DNA of 64,000 bases from Rikenellaceae bacterium (GTDB lineage: Bacteria; Bacteroidota; Bacteroidia; Bacteroidales; Rikenellaceae), in assembly GCA_015060015.1 (NCBI GenBank), contig SUZG01000006.1, positions 41,406 through 105,405 of the forward strand, read 5' to 3'. This document shows positions 6,567 to 19,105 of this stretch, in pieces. Numbering within the stretch: position 1 is the first letter of the stretch; each line of letters begins with the position of its first letter. The notes under the pieces were generated by a model. It searched no databases. It had not been told where the DNA came from and worked only from the letters and a program-made list of their open reading frames with translations. The position numbers were made by a program, and so were the translations under genes.

Positions 6567-6593
6567 TAACTTTGCTCCCCGAGTAAGGTTACT
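6567..6593 (+). promoter_or_regulatory. Candidate promoter and operator of the Hdr-like operon
   Basis: TAACTTTG at 6567-6574 fits the Bacteroidota -7 box, 26 bases before the first gene. It overlaps the left arm of a dyad: AGTAAC (6565-6570) and its complement GTTACT (6588-6593), 17 bases apart, followed by eight T residues up to the ATG. The dyad could bind a regulator or form a weak hairpin in the leader. No clear -33 box is seen. Confidence 0.4.
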
Positions 6594-6600
6594 TTTTTTT

Positions 6601-7296
6601 ATGGGTAAATATTTCGATTTATTGATGGAGGATGTCCGTCTGAAAGAGGGACTCAAAGCGTGCATGAACTGCGGCGTATGTACTGCGGTATGCCCCGCTG
6701 CGGCCTTCTACAACTACGATCCCCGTCAGATGATATCAATCGTACAGACTCGCGATGATGAGGCCATCGAGGCTCTGCTCAAAAGCGACACTATATGGTA
6801 TTGCGGCGAGTGTATGTCGTGCCGCCCTCGCTGCCCGCGAGGCAACACCCCCGGCTATGTAATTCAGGCTTTGCGTACGCTGTCGCAGAAGCTGGGTTTC
6901 TTTGTAGAGAGTGAGAAGGGCCGCCAGCAACTGGCCATCAAACGCACCATAGGCGACAATATCCTGCGTACGGGATATTGTCTGACACCCAAAGCCATAC
7001 GCCCCGATATGCACCCCGAGCAGGGTGTTGTATGGAAGTGGATTATCGATAACGACAAGGAGATTTTCGGACAGTTCTCCGACTCTTACGGCAAGGAGGG
7101 TGCAGGAGCCTTGCGAAAGGTCAGCGATGCCACATTGGAGGAGATACACAAGATTTTCGACATTACCGGAGGCACCGAGTTCTTCGACGCCATAGAGAGC
7201 CACTCCGACCGCAAGGCTCGCGAGATGGGCTACAACGGTGCCGACGAGGAGTATTTCCGCGATGTCTATACACATAACTCCAACGAACATTATTAG
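6601..7296 (+). CDS. HdrC-like iron-sulfur protein, first gene of the Hdr-like operon
   Basis: A 231-residue electron-transfer protein with two 4Fe-4S motifs of CxxCxxCxxxCP type: C21, C24, C27, C31 and C68, C71, C74, C78. This pairing is typical of heterodisulfide reductase subunit C, which passes electrons between the HdrA flavin and the HdrB catalytic clusters. The C-terminal 140 residues have no further cysteine clusters and are longer than in archaeal HdrC. It starts a tight operon: the HdrB-like gene begins 7 bases after its stop. There is no signal peptide, so it is cytoplasmic. The family is firm; the electron donor and acceptor are not known. Confidence 0.88.
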   Translation: MGKYFDLLMEDVRLKEGLKACMNCGVCTAVCPAAAFYNYDPRQMISIVQTRDDEAIEALLKSDTIWYCGECMSCRPRCPRGNTPGYVIQALRTLSQKLGFFVESEKGRQQLAIKRTIGDNILRTGYCLTPKAIRPDMHPEQGVVWKWIIDNDKEIFGQFSDSYGKEGAGALRKVSDATLEEIHKIFDITGGTEFFDAIESHSDRKAREMGYNGADEEYFRDVYTHNSNEHY

Positions 7297-7303
7297 TATT
7301 AGT

Positions 7304-8389
7304 ATGAAGAGATCGAGTTGGACCGACTACCAGAAAGATATTGCCGACGATAACTACTACTATGCTCGTTCGTGCATACGTCAGAACTTCTTCCCCGGAA
7401 GCGAGAAGGCGTTCCTGAATATATTGTCAAAGGATCTGGGCCGTAACATCTTTGATGACCCGCTGCATACCTCGTGTACGGGTATCGGCTACCACTCCGA
7501 CATAGTACCCTTACAGACGATTATGACCGTCGTGGCTCGTCAGTTTTCGCTTATGGCAGAGGCCGGATACGAAAACTTCACCTCGTCGTGCATCACATCG
7601 TTTGGCATCTACACCGAGTTGTTGAACACATGGGAGGAGTTCCCCGAGTTAGAGGAGCAGACACGCGAGGCGCTCTACAAGGCCACAGGCCGAGAGTTTG
7701 CCAAACCGAAGAATCTGGCTCACACATCGGACGTCATCTTCCACCACCGCGAGGAGATTGCCCGCAAGGCGAAGCACCGACTTGTAAATGCACACACCGG
7801 AGAGCCGTTGCGTGTTGTGGAGCATATAGGCTGCCACTACGCAAAGATATTCCCCAAGTCGGGCATCGGCGGCTCGGAGTTTCCCTATGTTCTGGCCGGC
7901 ATGGTCGAAGAGTGGGGAGGCGAGGTGGTTGATTACCCCGAACGACGCCACTGCTGCGGCTTCGGCTTCCGCAACTACATCGTTCAGGCCAATCGCGGCT
8001 ACTCGATAGCCAACTCTCACAAGAAGTTGGAGAGTATGTCGCCCTACCGCCCCGATTTCATCGTTACGAACTGCCCCGGCTGTTCGATGTTCCTCGACAA
8101 ATGGCAATATACCATCGCCGAGATGGAGGGCACAACCTACGGGCAGAACGGCTGCGGCATACCGGTCCTCACATACGAGGAGATGGCGGGCCTCGTGCTT
8201 GGATATGACCCCTGGGAGCTGGGTATGCAGATGCATCAGGTGGATGTAGAGCCCTTGTTGGGTAAGATGGGCATAGAGTATGACCCCTCGGCAAAATATC
8301 TCGGTCGTAATGGCAAATATATAGGCCGTCCCGAGAGTGCCATAGTAAACAGCAGAGCCAAAGAGACTCTCTACAAGATTAAGCAATAG
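7304..8389 (+). CDS. HdrB-like CCG-domain protein
   Basis: A 361-residue protein related to heterodisulfide reductase subunit B. The C-terminal cysteine-rich CCG module is complete (C177, C217-C218, C257 and C260), as needed for a non-cubane 4Fe-4S cluster. The N-terminal module aligns with HdrB (ARSCIRQNFFPG at 21-32 and later cysteines C58, C96) but the second Cys of the CC pair is T59 and the last Cys is S99, so one of the two clusters is doubtful. About 60 residues after the second module have no HdrB counterpart. The start at 7304 was chosen over an in-frame codon at 7238 because the latter overlaps the previous gene by 59 bases. Confidence 0.85.
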   Translation: MKRSSWTDYQKDIADDNYYYARSCIRQNFFPGSEKAFLNILSKDLGRNIFDDPLHTSCTGIGYHSDIVPLQTIMTVVARQFSLMAEAGYENFTSSCITSFGIYTELLNTWEEFPELEEQTREALYKATGREFAKPKNLAHTSDVIFHHREEIARKAKHRLVNAHTGEPLRVVEHIGCHYAKIFPKSGIGGSEFPYVLAGMVEEWGGEVVDYPERRHCCGFGFRNYIVQANRGYSIANSHKKLESMSPYRPDFIVTNCPGCSMFLDKWQYTIAEMEGTTYGQNGCGIPVLTYEEMAGLVLGYDPWELGMQMHQVDVEPLLGKMGIEYDPSAKYLGRNGKYIGRPESAIVNSRAKETLYKIKQ

Positions 8390-8395
8390 GATAGG

Positions 8396-9406
8396 ATGAA
8401 GCATATCGTAATCATAGGAGGAGGCATTGCCGGAATGCAGTGTGCCGTGGAGTTATCTTCTCTCGGCATATCGGCCACCGTTATCGAGAAGGAACGTGCT
8501 ACGGGTGGAAAACTCGCCTCGTGGCATCGCCTGTTCCCCACTTTTACTCCGGCAGAAGATGTACTCGGCGAGCTGCGTTTGAAGTTTGCCAAGGCGGCAA
8601 ATGTGTCGCTGCGTTGTGGCATCGAGGCCATAGAGATAACCCCCCGAAAGGTTACCCTCTCGACGGGCGAGGAGCTTAAATGCGACGCTGTGGTTCTGGC
8701 TACGGGCTTTACACTCTTTGATGCACGCATCAAGGAGGAGTACGGCTACGGCATCTATGACAATGTCGTTACCTCGGCCGACCTTGAAGAGATGTTCAAC
8801 CGAGGCGAGATAGTGCTGAAAAACGGCAACCGGCCTCGCCGCATAGCACTGCTGCACTGCGTAGGCTCACGCGACGAGAAGGTGTGCCAGCGACACTGCT
8901 CAAAGGTGTGCTGCGTGACGGGTGTCAAGCAGGCTATCGAGTTGAAAGAGATGTTCCCGACGGCCGATGTCTTTAACTTCTATATGGATATCCGTATGTT
9001 CGGCCCCGGCTACGAGGAGATGTATCGCGAGGCACAGGTTAAGCACAACGTACACTTCGTGCGAGGTCGTATATCGGAGGTGAGTCCCACAATTGATGGC
9101 CGCTTGCAACTCAAAGCCGAAGATACGCTTACGGGTCGCCCGTTGAAGATGAGTGTCGATATGCTTGTGCTGCTCGTCGGTATGCGTGCCAACGAGGAGA
9201 ACGCCGAGCTGGCTGCACGCTATGGTCTGCAATGTCAGGAGAGTGGTTTTATGAAGCCGCAGGATAACTTTATGCACAACGTGGAGAGCAATGTGGAGGG
9301 TATATTCTATGCCGGCACAATCACTGCTCCGAAGAGTGTTGGCGAGACGCTGAATGAGGCAACAACTGTTGCTCTGCGTATCAAGGAGTGGCTCCAGAAA
9401 CAATAA
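8396..9406 (+). CDS. Short HdrA-like FAD oxidoreductase
   Basis: A 336-residue flavoprotein with the N-terminal FAD-binding GGGIAG (8-13) and the HdrA signature HCVGSRDE (154-161) followed by C164, C168 and C172-C173. HdrA is the flavin subunit of heterodisulfide reductases and splits or passes electrons between partners. It is about half the size of methanogen HdrA: the inserted 4Fe-4S ferredoxin domains and the N-terminal extension are missing, as in QmoA-like short forms. It starts 6 bases after the HdrB-like gene. Whether it still bifurcates electrons cannot be told from sequence. Confidence 0.88.
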   Translation: MKHIVIIGGGIAGMQCAVELSSLGISATVIEKERATGGKLASWHRLFPTFTPAEDVLGELRLKFAKAANVSLRCGIEAIEITPRKVTLSTGEELKCDAVVLATGFTLFDARIKEEYGYGIYDNVVTSADLEEMFNRGEIVLKNGNRPRRIALLHCVGSRDEKVCQRHCSKVCCVTGVKQAIELKEMFPTADVFNFYMDIRMFGPGYEEMYREAQVKHNVHFVRGRISEVSPTIDGRLQLKAEDTLTGRPLKMSVDMLVLLVGMRANEENAELAARYGLQCQESGFMKPQDNFMHNVESNVEGIFYAGTITAPKSVGETLNEATTVALRIKEWLQKQ

Positions 9407-9418
9407 TTTTTGTCAGAT

Positions 9419-9748
9419 ATGATTAATTTCGGTTTTTCGATAAATAAGCCACGCGTCATCGACATTGACAACAACAACCTTCGGAAGAGCAACGAGATTA
9501 TACTCGAAATGCCGGAGTTGCAGGCCTGCATCGGCTGCGGATCGTGTACCGCATCCTGCACGGCAGGCAACCTCACGGATTTCAATTTCCGCAAGGTGCA
9601 TACGCTGGTGCGTCGTGGCGAATATCAGGGGGCCTATATGGAGCTTAACAAATGTATGCTTTGCGGCAAGTGCCGTCTGGTCTGTCCGCGAGGTATCAAT
9701 ACGCGAGGTATTGTTATGCTCATTAAACGAAAGTTAGGCGACTTTTAA
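9419..9748 (+). CDS. Small HdrC-like ferredoxin-type protein
   Basis: A 109-residue iron-sulfur protein with two 4Fe-4S motifs (C37, C40, C43, C47 and C79, C82, C85, C89) spaced as in HdrC. This is the second HdrC-type protein of the operon and is much shorter than the first. It begins 12 bases after the HdrA-like gene; ATG at 9419 is preferred over an in-frame TTG nine bases upstream. It probably links the soluble Hdr subunits to the membrane protein encoded next (inference from gene order). Confidence 0.85.
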   Translation: MINFGFSINKPRVIDIDNNNLRKSNEIILEMPELQACIGCGSCTASCTAGNLTDFNFRKVHTLVRRGEYQGAYMELNKCMLCGKCRLVCPRGINTRGIVMLIKRKLGDF

Positions 9749-9809
9749 CCTACCGCACCAAAACCGATTACCCACACCTCGCATTAAGAGTTTTTAGATT
9801 GATATAGTA

Positions 9810-11603
9810 ATGACTTTTTTCGCACCTTTCTGCATACCGTTTATTGTCGGAGCAACGCTGCTTTTCTTTTGCGTTGCCCTGAAATATTTTTCGTGGTTGC
9901 GACAGCTCCCGACAAGCGATATGATACTTATCGCCAAGGGAATCTTCACGCCTCGCACCCTCTCGGCGGTATGGGAGGTTGTGTGCGAGTCGCTGCTGCA
10001 CCGCCGCATATTCCGCCGCAATGTCGTGCTGGGATATATGCATATGAGCCTCGCCTTCGGCTGGTTTCTGCTTATCGTGGTGGGATGGATTGAGACCGTA
10101 TCCTATCTCGGAACAGAGTGGGTACCTCTGCAAGGACACGTCTTTTTCAAATATTTCGTACCCCTGAACGGCATTGAGGGCCACAAGCCCCTGTTCGACA
10201 ATGTTATGGATGCCCTGCTGCTCTTCGTGCTGTCGGGCGTTACGCTGGCGTGGCTGAAACGACTACGTTCACGCCTTATGGGTATGCGTCGTACCACGAA
10301 GCATATCTTCTTTGACCGCATAGCCCTCTCTGCTCTGTGGTTTATATTCCCGCTGCGACTTTTTGCCGAGAGCATCACCTGTGCCATCTATGGCGGAGGC
10401 GGTTTCCTCACAGGCAACATTGGCACACTACTCTCGCAGCATATCGGCACCGATATCCTGATGGCTCTCTATGAGCCGATGTGGTGGATGTACTCTTCGG
10501 CTCTGGGCGTATTCTTCGTGGCGATGCCCTTCTCGCGTTATATGCATATCTTTACCGAGATACCTCTCATCTTCCTGCGTCACTACCGCCTGCGTCCTGC
10601 GGCCAAGTCCAAGTCGTACGACAACTTCGAGATTGAGGCATGCTCGCGTTGCGGAATATGTATCGACCCATGTCAGTTGCAGAGCCAGCTGGGCATTGAC
10701 GATGTGCAGTCGGTATATTTTCTGCGTGATAGACGCTACAATATGCTGCAACAGAAGGTGGCCTACAACTGTCTTATGTGCGGCCGTTGCGAGGCTGTAT
10801 GTCCGGTGGGCATCAACCTCAACACCCTGCGACAAAACTCGCGTACAACGATGCGAAACATACCCAACGAGGGACGTTATAACTATCTGCGTGGTATAGA
10901 CCTCTCGCAGGGTGAGGGTCGCGTGGGCTATTTTGCGGGTTGTATGACCCTGCTTACGCCCAACACCATGTCGGCTATGCAACGTATATTTGAAGCCGCC
11001 GGCGAAAAGGTATGGTGGGCCGACAAGGAGGGTAGCGTATGCTGTGGTCGCCCATTGAAGCTATCGGGCGAAAGCGACTCGGCACAGAAGATGATCGACT
11101 ATAACAAATCACTCTTCGAGAAGCACAACATCACCACACTGGTAACCTCCTGCCCTATCTGTTTGAGGGTCTTCCGCGAGGACTACGACCTGCAAGGCAT
11201 CGAGGTACTGCACCACTCGGAGTATATCCTGCGACTGCTGCAACAGGGCCGACTGAAAGTAGGCTACTCGGCAGAGCAACGCTACACCTACCACGACCCC
11301 TGCGAGCTGGGTCGCGGAAGTGGCATCTACGACCAGCCGCGTGCCGTCATCGAGGCTGTGGGCATATTGTTGGAGCCGAAGCATAACCGCCGAGACTCCC
11401 TCTGCTGCGGCTCGTCGGTGGCCAATACCGCCATAAATGACGCCCAGCAACTCACCATCGCACGCAGCGTGGCCGACGAGCTGGAATCCACGGGTGCCGA
11501 GACCATCGTCACCGCCTGCCCACTCTGCAAAAAGGCTATTGCACGAGGCACGAAACAGCAAGTTTCCGACCTCTCGGAGATTATAGCCAACAGTTTGAGG
11601 TAA
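9810..11603 (+). CDS. Membrane HdrE-HdrD fusion iron-sulfur protein
   Basis: A 597-residue fusion. The first 255 residues hold about five membrane helices (near 4-22, 73-93, 130-150, 172-192, 225-248) like the cytochrome b subunits NarI and HdrE; H78 and H246 are possible haem ligands. Then come two 4Fe-4S motifs (C278, C281, C284, C288; C321, C324, C327, C331) and two complete CCG modules (C378, C411-C412, C448, C451; C498, C532-C533, C570, C573), the HdrD/DsrK part. Such proteins couple the quinone pool to a thiol/disulfide or other redox partner on the cytoplasmic face. It is the last gene of the operon, 61 bases after the small HdrC. Confidence 0.88.
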   Translation: MTFFAPFCIPFIVGATLLFFCVALKYFSWLRQLPTSDMILIAKGIFTPRTLSAVWEVVCESLLHRRIFRRNVVLGYMHMSLAFGWFLLIVVGWIETVSYLGTEWVPLQGHVFFKYFVPLNGIEGHKPLFDNVMDALLLFVLSGVTLAWLKRLRSRLMGMRRTTKHIFFDRIALSALWFIFPLRLFAESITCAIYGGGGFLTGNIGTLLSQHIGTDILMALYEPMWWMYSSALGVFFVAMPFSRYMHIFTEIPLIFLRHYRLRPAAKSKSYDNFEIEACSRCGICIDPCQLQSQLGIDDVQSVYFLRDRRYNMLQQKVAYNCLMCGRCEAVCPVGINLNTLRQNSRTTMRNIPNEGRYNYLRGIDLSQGEGRVGYFAGCMTLLTPNTMSAMQRIFEAAGEKVWWADKEGSVCCGRPLKLSGESDSAQKMIDYNKSLFEKHNITTLVTSCPICLRVFREDYDLQGIEVLHHSEYILRLLQQGRLKVGYSAEQRYTYHDPCELGRGSGIYDQPRAVIEAVGILLEPKHNRRDSLCCGSSVANTAINDAQQLTIARSVADELESTGAETIVTACPLCKKAIARGTKQQVSDLSEIIANSLR

Positions 11604-15742: not shown

Positions 15743-15750
15743 TATTTTTG
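15743..15750 (+). promoter_or_regulatory. Candidate -7 element for the cysteate synthase gene
   Basis: TATTTTTG fits TAnnTTTG and lies 31 bases before the ATG at 15782. The -33 part is weak. Confidence 0.4.
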
Positions 15751-15781
15751 CACATTAGTATAAAATATTCAATCCAATAAG

Positions 15782-17074
15782 ATGAGTAATTTCAAGCCTA
15801 CAAACTATACGCTGCGATGCGTAGCCACAGGACACGAATTCGCCGACCACGGTTGGGATTTGGCAGATAACGAGTGTGCAGAACCTTCATTGGTACGAGC
15901 AATCTACGAGAAGAAAAAAATCGAGGTAAAGGAGGAGTTGGACTTCTATCGCTTCTGCGACTGGTTGCCCGTAAGGCGTATGCTGAAGGGCTCGGCAGCC
16001 CCTGTGACATTCCGCAGCAAGGGTCTGGCAGCTCACCTCGGTTTGGAAAATCTCTACATCACACTTAATGGTTACAGCCCCGCACACGGTGCCAAGATGA
16101 CGACCTGTTCGTTCAAAGAGACCGAGGCTTACAGCGTATGTGGCCGTATGAGTGACGACGAGAAACGCGTTTTGGTCGTAGCCTCTGCCGGAAATACAGC
16201 CCGTGCCTTCGCAAAGGTATGTTCGGAGAATAACATCCGCCTGCTATTGTCTGTACCTGCCGACAACCTCAATGCTTTATGGTTTGAGAAGCCCTTGAAC
16301 CCCTGCGTGAAGCTTATCGCCTGTGAGCAGGGCGGCGACTACTTCGACGCTATACGTTTGGGTGATATGGCCCTGCAATCGCCTATGTTCTATGCCGAGG
16401 GAGGTGCGAAGAATATCGCACGCCGCGACGGTATGGCAACAACAATGCTCTCGGCCGCAACAACAATCGGCCGCATACCCGACTACTACTTCCAGGCCGT
16501 AGGTAGCGGCACAGGTGCCATTGCAGCATGGGAGGCCAACCTCCGACTGATTGAGGATGGTCGTTTTGGCGATAACACCGCCAAGCTTATGGTGTCGCAG
16601 AATGCCCCCTTCGTGCCTATGTATGACGCTTGGAGAGCCGACTCTCGCGAGATGTTGCCCTACGAGACACATCGTGCCCGTCGCGATGCAAGCATCATCG
16701 ATGCAAAGGTGTTGTCAAACCGCAAGCCCCCTTACAGCATCAAGGGTGGCCTGTATGACGCTTTGAAGGCAACAGATGGCGATGTCTTGGTCGTTACAAA
16801 CGCACAAGAGAGAAAGGCGGCACGCCTGTTTGAAGAGTTGGAGGGTATCGACATCCACCCCGCAGCAGCTGTTGCCGTAGCTTCGCTTATCAAGGCCGTA
16901 GATGGCGGTCAGGTGGACAAGAAGGCTACCATCATGCTCAACATAACGGGTGCCGGTGAGAAGCGTTTCAAAGCCGAGCACGATATAGTCTATCTCCAAC
17001 CGGAGAAGATTTTCCCGCTTAACGTAGAGGCCGACGCTGTTGTTGAAGCCGTAGAGGCAATGTTTTCAGAGTAG
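15782..17074 (+). CDS. Cysteate synthase (threonine synthase paralogue)
   Basis: A 430-residue PLP enzyme of fold type II. The PLP lysine lies in TCSFKETEA (K112), followed by SAGN (135-138), EGGAKN (206-211) and the phosphate-binding GSGTG (241-245). YRFCDWLPV (56-64) and EGGAKNIARRDGM (206-218) match the cysteate synthase subfamily known from Methanosarcina and sulfonolipid-making Bacteroidota, and not ordinary ThrC. The enzyme makes L-cysteate from O-phosphoserine and sulfite; in Alistipes-type bacteria cysteate is the head-group precursor of sulfonolipids (capnine family). The lipid assembly genes are not seen in this window. manA follows 28 bases later but need not be linked in function. 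Confidence 0.88.
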   Translation: MSNFKPTNYTLRCVATGHEFADHGWDLADNECAEPSLVRAIYEKKKIEVKEELDFYRFCDWLPVRRMLKGSAAPVTFRSKGLAAHLGLENLYITLNGYSPAHGAKMTTCSFKETEAYSVCGRMSDDEKRVLVVASAGNTARAFAKVCSENNIRLLLSVPADNLNALWFEKPLNPCVKLIACEQGGDYFDAIRLGDMALQSPMFYAEGGAKNIARRDGMATTMLSAATTIGRIPDYYFQAVGSGTGAIAAWEANLRLIEDGRFGDNTAKLMVSQNAPFVPMYDAWRADSREMLPYETHRARRDASIIDAKVLSNRKPPYSIKGGLYDALKATDGDVLVVTNAQERKAARLFEELEGIDIHPAAAVAVASLIKAVDGGQVDKKATIMLNITGAGEKRFKAEHDIVYLQPEKIFPLNVEADAVVEAVEAMFSE

Positions 17075-18119: not shown

Positions 18120-18154
18120 CAAGGGTGTCTGATAGTAAAAGTCAGACACCCTTG
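18120..18154. terminator. Bidirectional terminator between manA and queG
   Basis: A 13-bp perfect stem (CAAGGGTGTCTGA and complement) with a 9-nt loop and T-rich flanks on both strands. The queG stop codon lies inside the element. Confidence 0.9.
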
Positions 18155-19059
18155 TTCTTTTCTACATTCTGCTGTATTCGCCGCAGTCCACTGCGTTTAA
18201 GCGGTGTGGAGCCAAATCTCAATGTAAACTCCTCCTCACTCATTGCCAGCCACTCCTCGGCCGATATTTCGGCGGGCAAGAACATAGGGCGATACACTTC
18301 GCCCTCTGCATCTGCCTGATTTTTATTATAGGGGCAGCACAGCTGACACTCATCGCAACCAAAAATCCAGCCTCCCAAATCAAGTTCGTTTTGCGACTCT
18401 GCCTCAATCGTGTGGCACGAGATGCAATGCGACGTATCGACTCCCCTGCACTCCACTACTGCCTTTGTCGGGCAGGCCTCCACGCAACGCCTGCACTCGC
18501 CACAGCCGACACCCTCGTAACGTCGGTCATAGCGACTGACCTCGTCATCCAGAAGCAACACGCCCAGCAACAGAGCCGTTCCATATTGTGGCGTCACAAG
18601 CAACGACTGCCGCCCTATCCAGCCCAGACCCGCCTCGACGGCATATTGCTTTTCGGACAGAGGCTCGGAATCGACAAAGGCACGTCCCTGCAACTGCGGA
18701 TACTCCGTCTGCAACGATTTGAGCATCTGCTGCAACATCTTTTTGATGCTTTTGTGATAGTCCCGACGGCAGGCATAAGAGGCTATTTTCGTACGACTTT
18801 CGGCGTGGTATGACTTGTCGTTGAGCAACTTATAACGCACTGCACACACCACCACGCTGCGAGCCCCCTCAACCAGACGACCAGCATCAAAACGCTTCTC
18901 GCGGTTGCGATACATATACTCCAGCGACGAGGCATATCCGGCATTCAGCCACTCACCAAACGAGGCCTCGCCCGCAACCAGCGGCCGGGCAGCCGTAACA
19001 CCGCAGAGGTCAAAGCCTGCGGCCGATGCAACTCTTTTTATGTCAGAATACTCTATCAT
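18142..19059 (-). CDS. queG: Epoxyqueuosine reductase QueG
   Basis: A 305-residue enzyme for the last step of queuosine synthesis in tRNA, reduction of epoxyqueuosine with a cobalamin cofactor and iron-sulfur clusters. Seen are the catalytic Asp in FVDSEPL (D130), a first 4Fe-4S motif GCGECRRCVEACPT (C186, C189, C192, C196) and the second part with CISCHTIE and CDECQLCCPYN. The length is slightly under the roughly 310-380 residues of other QueG proteins. ATG at 19059 is preferred to an upstream GTG at 19095. It stands alone on the minus strand; its 3' end lies in a shared terminator. Confidence 0.93.
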   Translation of the reverse strand: MIEYSDIKRVASAAGFDLCGVTAARPLVAGEASFGEWLNAGYASSLEYMYRNREKRFDAGRLVEGARSVVVCAVRYKLLNDKSYHAESRTKIASYACRRDYHKSIKKMLQQMLKSLQTEYPQLQGRAFVDSEPLSEKQYAVEAGLGWIGRQSLLVTPQYGTALLLGVLLLDDEVSRYDRRYEGVGCGECRRCVEACPTKAVVECRGVDTSHCISCHTIEAESQNELDLGGWIFGCDECQLCCPYNKNQADAEGEVYRPMFLPAEISAEEWLAMSEEEFTLRFGSTPLKRSGLRRIQQNVEKNKGV

Positions 19060-19105
19060 CTGCGAAATTTGGCTCAAAAATAGTGAAAATTCCACTATTT
19101 TTCAG

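What the first reader, a model, noticed from the sequence alone, without database searches (positions are those of the whole stretch)
6567..11603. Five-gene Hdr-like redox operon without a partner dehydrogenase
Seen: HdrC, HdrB, HdrA, a small second HdrC and a membrane HdrE-HdrD fusion in a row, with gaps of 7, 6, 12 and 61 bases. Known: methanogen HdrABC works with MvhADG hydrogenase or formate dehydrogenase, other bacterial HdrABC with the FlxABCD proteins, and QmoABC with a quinone. Here none of these partner genes is next to the operon, and HdrA is a short form without its ferredoxin domains. Inference: the soluble HdrABC-like part and the membrane HdrED-like part form one quinone-linked complex that exchanges electrons with an unknown thiol, sulfur or ferredoxin partner. 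A link to sulfite or cysteate use in this sulfonolipid-type organism is a speculative idea.
Basis: partly seen in the sequence, partly recalled or inferred. Interest (0 to 1): 0.72.

Follow-up and report, generated by a model that had tools for sequence, protein, structure and literature searches.

The report
Oxygen-free sulfite maker for gut sulfonolipids
Five adjacent genes in a gut Alistipes bacterium encode iron-sulfur and flavin proteins that likely turn reduced sulfur into sulfite without oxygen; the sulfite would feed a cysteate synthase encoded 4 kb away, which is predicted to start the making of sulfonolipids, lipids found in such gut bacteria.

Summary
In detail: C1-B1-A-C2-ED in a row (6601-11603), gaps 7, 6, 12, 61; only the start is off (6567 is a promoter-like box). 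The order is complete in 74 of 80 named Rikenellaceae loci; six are cut by contig ends. It mirrors the Hdr-like sulfur-oxidation operon (C1-B1-A-H-C2-B2), with B2 replaced by an EtfD-like membrane fusion and no LbpA. The window encodes a cysteate synthase 4.2 kb downstream. In 7 of 71 order-wide neighbourhoods, from at least two B1 lineages, the operon adjoins one or more sulfonolipid-pathway genes on the same strand. CFAT occurs in 63 of 66 B1 genomes, 78 of 132 others. Among 80 genomes with CFAT and a cysteate-synthase type, B1 is in 16 of 19 lacking sulfate assimilation (PF01507), 14 of 61 having it. I propose a menaquinone-linked complex making sulfite for sulfonolipids. Against: six genus members lack both routes, B1 is not associated with cysteate synthase itself, one synthase type is inferred, and the chemistry is untested.

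The parts
6567..6575 (+). promoter-like box TAACTTTGC 25 bases before the C1 start codon
   Evidence: pattern match, sequence; the motif as Bacteroidota -7 box is recalled; overall match number in the window is near chance
6601..7296 (+). C1: HdrC-type two-cluster ferredoxin subunit, 231 aa
   Evidence: HdrC model 90.5 bits, below cut-off
7304..8389 (+). B1: HdrB-type subunit, 361 aa; complete C-terminal CCG motif (C177, C217, C218, C257, C260), degenerate N-terminal one (C24, C58, C96)
   Evidence: residues invariant in 70 of 70
8396..9406 (+). A: short HdrA-type flavoprotein, 336 aa, no ferredoxin domains; four invariant cysteines
   Evidence: full-length match to PDB 6tjr
9419..9748 (+). 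C2: second small HdrC-type ferredoxin, 109 aa
9810..11603 (+). ED: predicted membrane part with 3 invariant histidines, then two Fer4 clusters and two complete CCG sites, 597 aa
15782..17074 (+). cysteate synthase, 430 aa, proposed consumer of the sulfite; 4178 bases after ED, with tRNA-Met, GH92 and one minus-strand ORF between
   Evidence: NCBIfam TIGR03844 476.6 bits, cut-off 324.9; promoter-like TATTTTTGC at 15743-15751, so probably a separate transcript

Best explanation
The five genes encode a predicted membrane-anchored, Hdr-like complex that likely oxidises sulfane sulfur (persulfide-level sulfur) to sulfite and passes the electrons to menaquinone, and the sulfite would be used by cysteate synthase (window 15782-17074) to start sulfonolipid synthesis. 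Shown: the gene set and its conservation; invariant cluster ligands; the cysteate synthase in the window; operons elsewhere that join this complex to cysteate-synthase-type, CFAT/SulA, SDR and glyoxalase-like genes; co-occurrence with CFAT; the tendency of the complex to stand in where PF01507 (CysD/CysH type sulfate assimilation) is missing. Inferred: B1 with C1 and A works on a sulfur-carrying thiol as in the sHdr system; C2 and the two CCG sites of ED carry electrons or a second half-reaction; the membrane part with H64, H78 and H246 binds haem b and reduces menaquinone, to be re-oxidised by fumarate reduction. Sulfide-level sulfur to sulfite near -116 mV, menaquinone near -74 mV and fumarate near +30 mV (recalled standard values) make this feasible without oxygen.
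For: Anatomy: A matches the sHdrA structure 6tjr over 1-327 (197.3 bits; that 6tjr is Hyphomicrobium sHdrA is recalled); order C1-B1-A-C2 is that of sHdr operons (PMC6067878, introduction and one results section read; PMC11582611, passages), whose product is described there as sulfite. A Picosynechococcus plasmid has C1-B1-A-C2-B2 in the same order, 46.6% (C1) and 42.8% (B1) identical, followed by an SQR-like flavoprotein (83 bits, far below cut-off). ED: best fold match EtfD. Neighbourhood: 7 of 71 (L017, L018, L166, L180, L183, L186, L201) adjoin one or more sulfonolipid-type genes, same strand; two lineages at least are forced on the quick B1 tree. In L017 and L018 the gene beside ED is a cysteate synthase over cut-off (460.9 and 442.6 bits); the L017 aminotransferase matches A. 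finegoldii SulA 7u7h (544 bits; that 7u7h is SulA is recalled) and a PDB entry named cysteate-C-fatty acyltransferase (526.9). Co-occurrence: CFAT in 63 of 66 B1 genomes against 78 of 132 (p 1.3e-8); one genome per family, 35 of 36 against 53 of 83 (p 6e-5). Complementarity: 16 of 19 against 14 of 61 (p 2.6e-6); one per family 11 of 14 against 7 of 37 (p 1.4e-4); with the two weak PF01507 matches counted as present 14 of 17 against 16 of 63 (p 3e-5). The own genome has no PF01507 match at 1e-10.
Against: Within the genus there is no complementarity: 6 of 7 genomes without ED also lack PF01507 (G005, G008, G017, G018, G020, G024), five of them with cysteate synthase and all six with CFAT (p 1.0), so they need another sulfite source. 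B1 is not associated with cysteate synthase as such (33 of 66 against 58 of 132, p 0.45), and among 61 CFAT genomes without a recognised synthase type there is no complementarity (p 1.0). G027, G079, G082 have synthase and CFAT but neither route. The second synthase type is inferred from position; it reaches no NCBIfam cut-off. With TIGR03844 alone the signal is weaker (p 0.004; 0.024 with weak matches as present). In 79 of 80 named loci no cysteate synthase lies in the held DNA, so the 4.2 kb distance in the window is lineage-specific. No lipoate-binding LbpA is found. Direction, substrate and haem are untested. PF01507 does not tell CysD from CysH.
Confidence: 0.5

Rival explanations
1. The complex runs the other way, like methanogen HdrDE: menaquinol reduces a cytoplasmic disulfide or polysulfide, and the sulfonolipid link is indirect (for instance recycling a thiol used in lipid or sulfur handling).
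For: ED has two complete CCG sites and a b-type-like membrane part, the make-up of HdrDE (recalled); sequence does not fix direction.
Against: No step of cysteate to capnine synthesis as described (PMC10191378, passages) needs a disulfide reductase; the stand-in for sulfate assimilation is not predicted.
Confidence: 0.2
2. Dissimilatory reading: the complex is a respiratory sulfur oxidase that gains energy by feeding menaquinone; sulfonolipid synthesis merely removes sulfite.
For: sHdr systems are dissimilatory (PMC6067878); 31 of 61 complex-bearing CFAT genomes have no recognised cysteate-synthase type.
Against: Nearly all carriers have CFAT (63 of 66) and seven neighbourhoods place it among lipid genes; no SQR, Sox or LbpA gene was seen beside it in the flanks I annotated.
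Confidence: 0.13
3. The complex is a general thiol or ferredoxin to menaquinone branch unrelated to sulfite; gene neighbourhood with lipid genes reflects chance or shared regulation.
For: 64 of 71 neighbourhoods show no sulfonolipid gene in the fetched DNA; six genus members lack both routes.
Against: Same-strand clusters in at least two B1 lineages with two types of synthase; short A lacks the ferredoxin domains.
Confidence: 0.17

Closest known systems
sHdr-LbpA sulfur-oxidising system, types I and II
   Same: C1-B1-A-C2 order; short HdrA-type flavoprotein; B1 proposed catalytic subunit; in type II C2 and B2 are fused, and EtfAB is the electron partner (PMC11582611, passages)
   Different: no LbpA, no sHdrH; last subunit is a membrane fusion; hosts are Bacteroidales with sulfonolipid genes
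Picosynechococcus PCC 7003 plasmid cluster (NZ_CP016476.1, 185219-190959)
   Same: C1-B1-A-C2-B2 in order; C1 46.6%, B1 42.8% identical; degenerate N-terminal CCG in B1
   Different: soluble two-CCG B2 instead of ED; followed by an SQR-like flavoprotein
EtfD (Mycobacterium, 9ojn)
   Same: membrane part, Fer4, CCG; sequence 1.7e-19 and fold
   Different: serves EtfAB (recalled); 1042 residues; no Hdr operon
HdrDE and HdrABC of methanogens; QmoABC
   Same: shared subunit families
   Different: short A without ferredoxin domains; B1 keeps one full CCG site; a single A-type protein, whereas Qmo has two (recalled)
Sulfonolipid pathway: cysteate synthase, CFAT/SulA, 3-ketocapnine reductase
   Same: genes in the window, the genome and the linked clusters
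   Different: published work that I saw (passages) does not name the sulfite source

Membership tests
sHdr-LbpA system | short HdrA like 6tjr over its length | tested here: met
   1-327 of 336 to 1-334 of 349, 197.3 bits; the HdrA core of methanogens scores alike (202.8)
sHdr-LbpA system | syntenic core C1-B1-A-H-C2-B2 (type I) or C1-B1-A-H-B3 with etfAB (type II) | tested here: not met
   C1-B1-A-C2 present; no H; B2/B3 replaced by membrane ED
sHdr-LbpA system | lipoate-binding LbpA genes associated with the cluster | tested here: not met
   no GcvH-like ORF in 71 neighbourhoods at 1e-3, one in 80 named loci (L082, opposite strand); one GCV_H in the own genome, none in G028, which carries the operon
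sHdr-LbpA system | oxidises sulfane sulfur to sulfite | not testable with these tools
   needs an enzyme assay
HdrABC (electron-bifurcating) | full-length HdrA with ferredoxin domains and a partner Mvh, Fdh or Flx | tested here: not met
   A covers only the core; no partner among annotated neighbours in the window
HdrDE | two CCG sites plus Fer4 with a haem b membrane subunit | tested here: inconclusive
   two CCG, Fer4 and three invariant His in one chain; haem and activity not testable
QmoABC | two HdrA-like flavoproteins and QmoC | tested here: not met
   one A in the own genome; C1 scores 47.5 against a QmoC cut-off of 300
EtfD | partner EtfAB | not tested
   no ETF model was run
cysteate synthase (window 15782-17074) | NCBIfam TIGR03844 over cut-off | tested here: met
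   476.6 against 324.9

The most novel reading that the evidence does not exclude
A third, membrane-anchored and LbpA-free type of Hdr-like sulfur oxidase whose job is anabolic: strict anaerobes of the gut and elsewhere use it with menaquinone to make sulfite from sulfide-level sulfur for sulfonolipids, in place of sulfate assimilation; the whole pathway with the oxidase travels as one cassette (L017: Glx-CFAT-SDR-C1-B1-A-C2-ED-CysS).
Probability: 0.4. Interest if true: 0.85.

Novelty: new variant of a known kind. Interest (0 to 1): 0.77.

Why it matters
Sulfonolipids of Alistipes and Odoribacter are studied for their effects in the gut, yet the passages I saw of three papers on their synthesis do not say where the sulfite for cysteate comes from in anaerobes that lack sulfate assimilation. 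This gives a testable answer, gives a function to an Hdr operon found in 66 of 198 order genomes, and would show the sHdr chemistry used for building rather than for energy.

Tried and rejected
Tried without gain: placing A by protein searches (searches list only the top 120 of 3032 and 6938 hits, all near the query); named genome scan returned only near Rikenellaceae of 545 relatives found. Considered and rejected: electron bifurcation (no ferredoxin domains in A); QmoABC (single A); sHdr-LbpA membership (no LbpA, no H); the idea that the operon simply follows TIGR03844 (22 of 52 synthase genomes against 44 of 146 others, p 0.12). The phylum sample (395 genomes) gave 31 matches besides the own genome, all at 28-32% identity, so the near family looks confined to the order in that sample. 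A split membrane-Fer4 plus HdrB pair in G029, G031, G034, G036, G038, G040 was not followed. The B1 tree is a quick tree; the careful search did not finish.

Errors mended: one GcvH query (L204) and L206 were read on the wrong strand; one search repeats it correctly. In one search a file with many proteins was read as one, so its 'sHdrA_P0001' rows stand for P0001-P0240; I use only the C1 and B1 rows. An earlier count said that all ED-less genus members have cysteate synthase; G024 does not. Entry 3 lists L179 and L191 as paralogues; the tree puts them elsewhere.
Full report
Observation. The five genes are there as described with gaps of 7, 6, 12 and 61 bases. The only correction is the start: C1 begins at 6601, and 6567 is the first base of a promoter-like TAACTTTGC. 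The window lies at C2:41406-105405 of a 1.88 Mb assembly, 94.22% complete; a named near relative is an Alistipes MAG from dairy cattle caecum (L025, B1 99% identical).

Conservation. ED is present in 18 of 25 genus genomes (counted). The order C1-B1-A-C2-ED is complete in 74 of 80 named Rikenellaceae loci, the other six being cut by contig ends. In the order-wide sample B1 is found in 66 of 198 genomes. Of 71 neighbourhoods (65 fetched after plus six), 53 hold the five genes in order, two hold C1-C2-ED-B1-A, and the rest are partial, cut, or copies in other contexts. Seven copies (L151, L168, L173, L175, L184, L192, L193) form one B1 subclade with C1-B1 beside other genes; these look like a paralogue with another job.

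Anatomy. B1 keeps one complete CCG site and a degenerate one; eight cysteines are invariant in 70 of 70 sequences. ED has eight Fer4 and ten CCG cysteines and H64, H78, H246 invariant in 59 of 59. A keeps C155, C168, C172, C173 in 65 of 65. The ED model (pLDDT 74.0, pTM 0.50) has five long N-terminal helices; its best PDB match is EtfD. Three invariant histidines fit at least one haem b (inference).

What it resembles. A aligns over its length with 6tjr, recalled as sHdrA of Hyphomicrobium denitrificans, but scores the HdrA core of methanogens equally. The operon order is that of sHdr operons, which oxidise sulfane sulfur to sulfite. A plasmid of Picosynechococcus PCC 7003 carries the soluble version C1-B1-A-C2-B2. 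What is missing is LbpA: no GcvH-like ORF in 71 neighbourhoods, one in 80 named loci, one GCV_H in the own genome and none in G028. It is therefore not filed as an sHdr-LbpA system, though it may work like one.

The sulfonolipid link. ORF 15782-17074 in the window is a cysteate synthase (476.6 bits, cut-off 324.9), 4178 bases after ED. This closeness is lineage-specific: of 80 named loci only L025 shows it in the held DNA. Elsewhere the link is tighter. L017 (G022) reads glyoxalase-like, CFAT, SDR, C1, B1, A, C2, ED, cysteate synthase; L018 (G032) has cysteate synthase next to ED; L166, L180, L183 and L186 have CFAT and/or a second PLP enzyme type, with SDR and glyoxalase-like genes in three of them; L201 has CFAT after ED. 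The G209 CFAT lies just outside L183. On the quick B1 tree L017 and L018 are apart from the other five, and starred branches force at least two origins or losses. G022 is of the own genus but its ED is 42% identical to the window, against 66-81% for the 16 other genus copies, and its B1 sits with G032 of another family: lateral transfer of the whole cassette, or a misbinned contig.

Co-occurrence. Of 198 order genomes, CFAT is found in 141, TIGR03844 in 52, the second PLP type in 39 and PF01507 in 154, of which 147 strong. CFAT is in 63 of 66 B1 genomes and 78 of 132 others; with one genome per family and the two paralogue-only genomes (G078, G114) not counted as carriers, 35 of 36 and 53 of 83. 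Among 80 genomes with CFAT and either synthase type, B1 is in 16 of 19 without strong PF01507 and 14 of 61 with it (p 2.6e-6). In genomes without CFAT there is no such pattern (3 carriers, all with PF01507, among 57), which is the control that the effect belongs to sulfonolipid makers. Fisher tests ignore kinship; the one-per-family set eases but does not remove this.

Results against. Within the genus 6 of 7 genomes without ED also lack PF01507; five of these have cysteate synthase and all six CFAT. Completeness is 85-95%. B1 is not associated with the synthase types as such (p 0.45). Sixty-one CFAT genomes have no recognised synthase type, 31 of them carriers, and show no complementarity; PMC10191378 (passages) describes a third enzyme, CapA, that I could not search.

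Mechanism. Most likely B1-C1-A take sulfane sulfur from a protein thiol and oxidise it stepwise to sulfite, while C2 and ED carry the electrons to menaquinone. Cysteate synthase then joins sulfite to O-phosphoserine (reaction with sulfite recalled for the archaeal enzyme; PMC10191378 speaks of sulfonation of phosphoserine). The sulfur carrier is unknown.

Print. Searches of the open library were made. In one search, 28 papers held two or more of heterodisulfide reductase, sulfonolipid, cysteate and capnine; of the 10 listed only PMC12713407 (methanogen coenzyme M) held the first term. Subscription papers are not covered.

Noticed in passing
L017 1308-2384; L166 12127-13191; L180; L183: A glyoxalase-superfamily protein of about 355 aa with an unassigned N-terminal half lies in four of the sulfonolipid-Hdr clusters, always on the operon's strand; function unknown.
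   Followed up: partly
L166 5076-6308, L180, L183, L186 12239-13468: A PLP enzyme 23-28% identical to cysteate synthase, best model threonine synthase but below cut-off, sits with CFAT: candidate third kind of cysteate synthase; found in 39 of 198 order genomes.
   Followed up: partly
L151, L168, L173, L175, L184, L192, L193: A B1 subclade with C1-B1 but no ED in gene-rich clusters with P-loop ATPases of the Mrp/NBP35 look (by eye); another use of the same subunit pair.
   Followed up: no
L016, L154, L159, L169, L189, L196, L198, L200: A sensor kinase and LuxR-type regulator pair (by eye; kinase domains by Pfam in L016) lies just upstream of the operon in eight loci.
   Followed up: no
L207 (NZ_CP016476.1): Cyanobacterial plasmid with a C1-B1-A-C2-B2 Hdr-like cluster followed by an SQR-like flavoprotein.
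   Followed up: partly
G029, G031, G034, G036, G038, G040: Separate membrane-Fer4 protein (about 440 aa) beside an HdrB-like protein (about 270 aa), resembling ED in two pieces.
   Followed up: no
window 18142-19095 (-): QueG epoxyqueuosine reductase over its NCBIfam cut-off.
   Followed up: no
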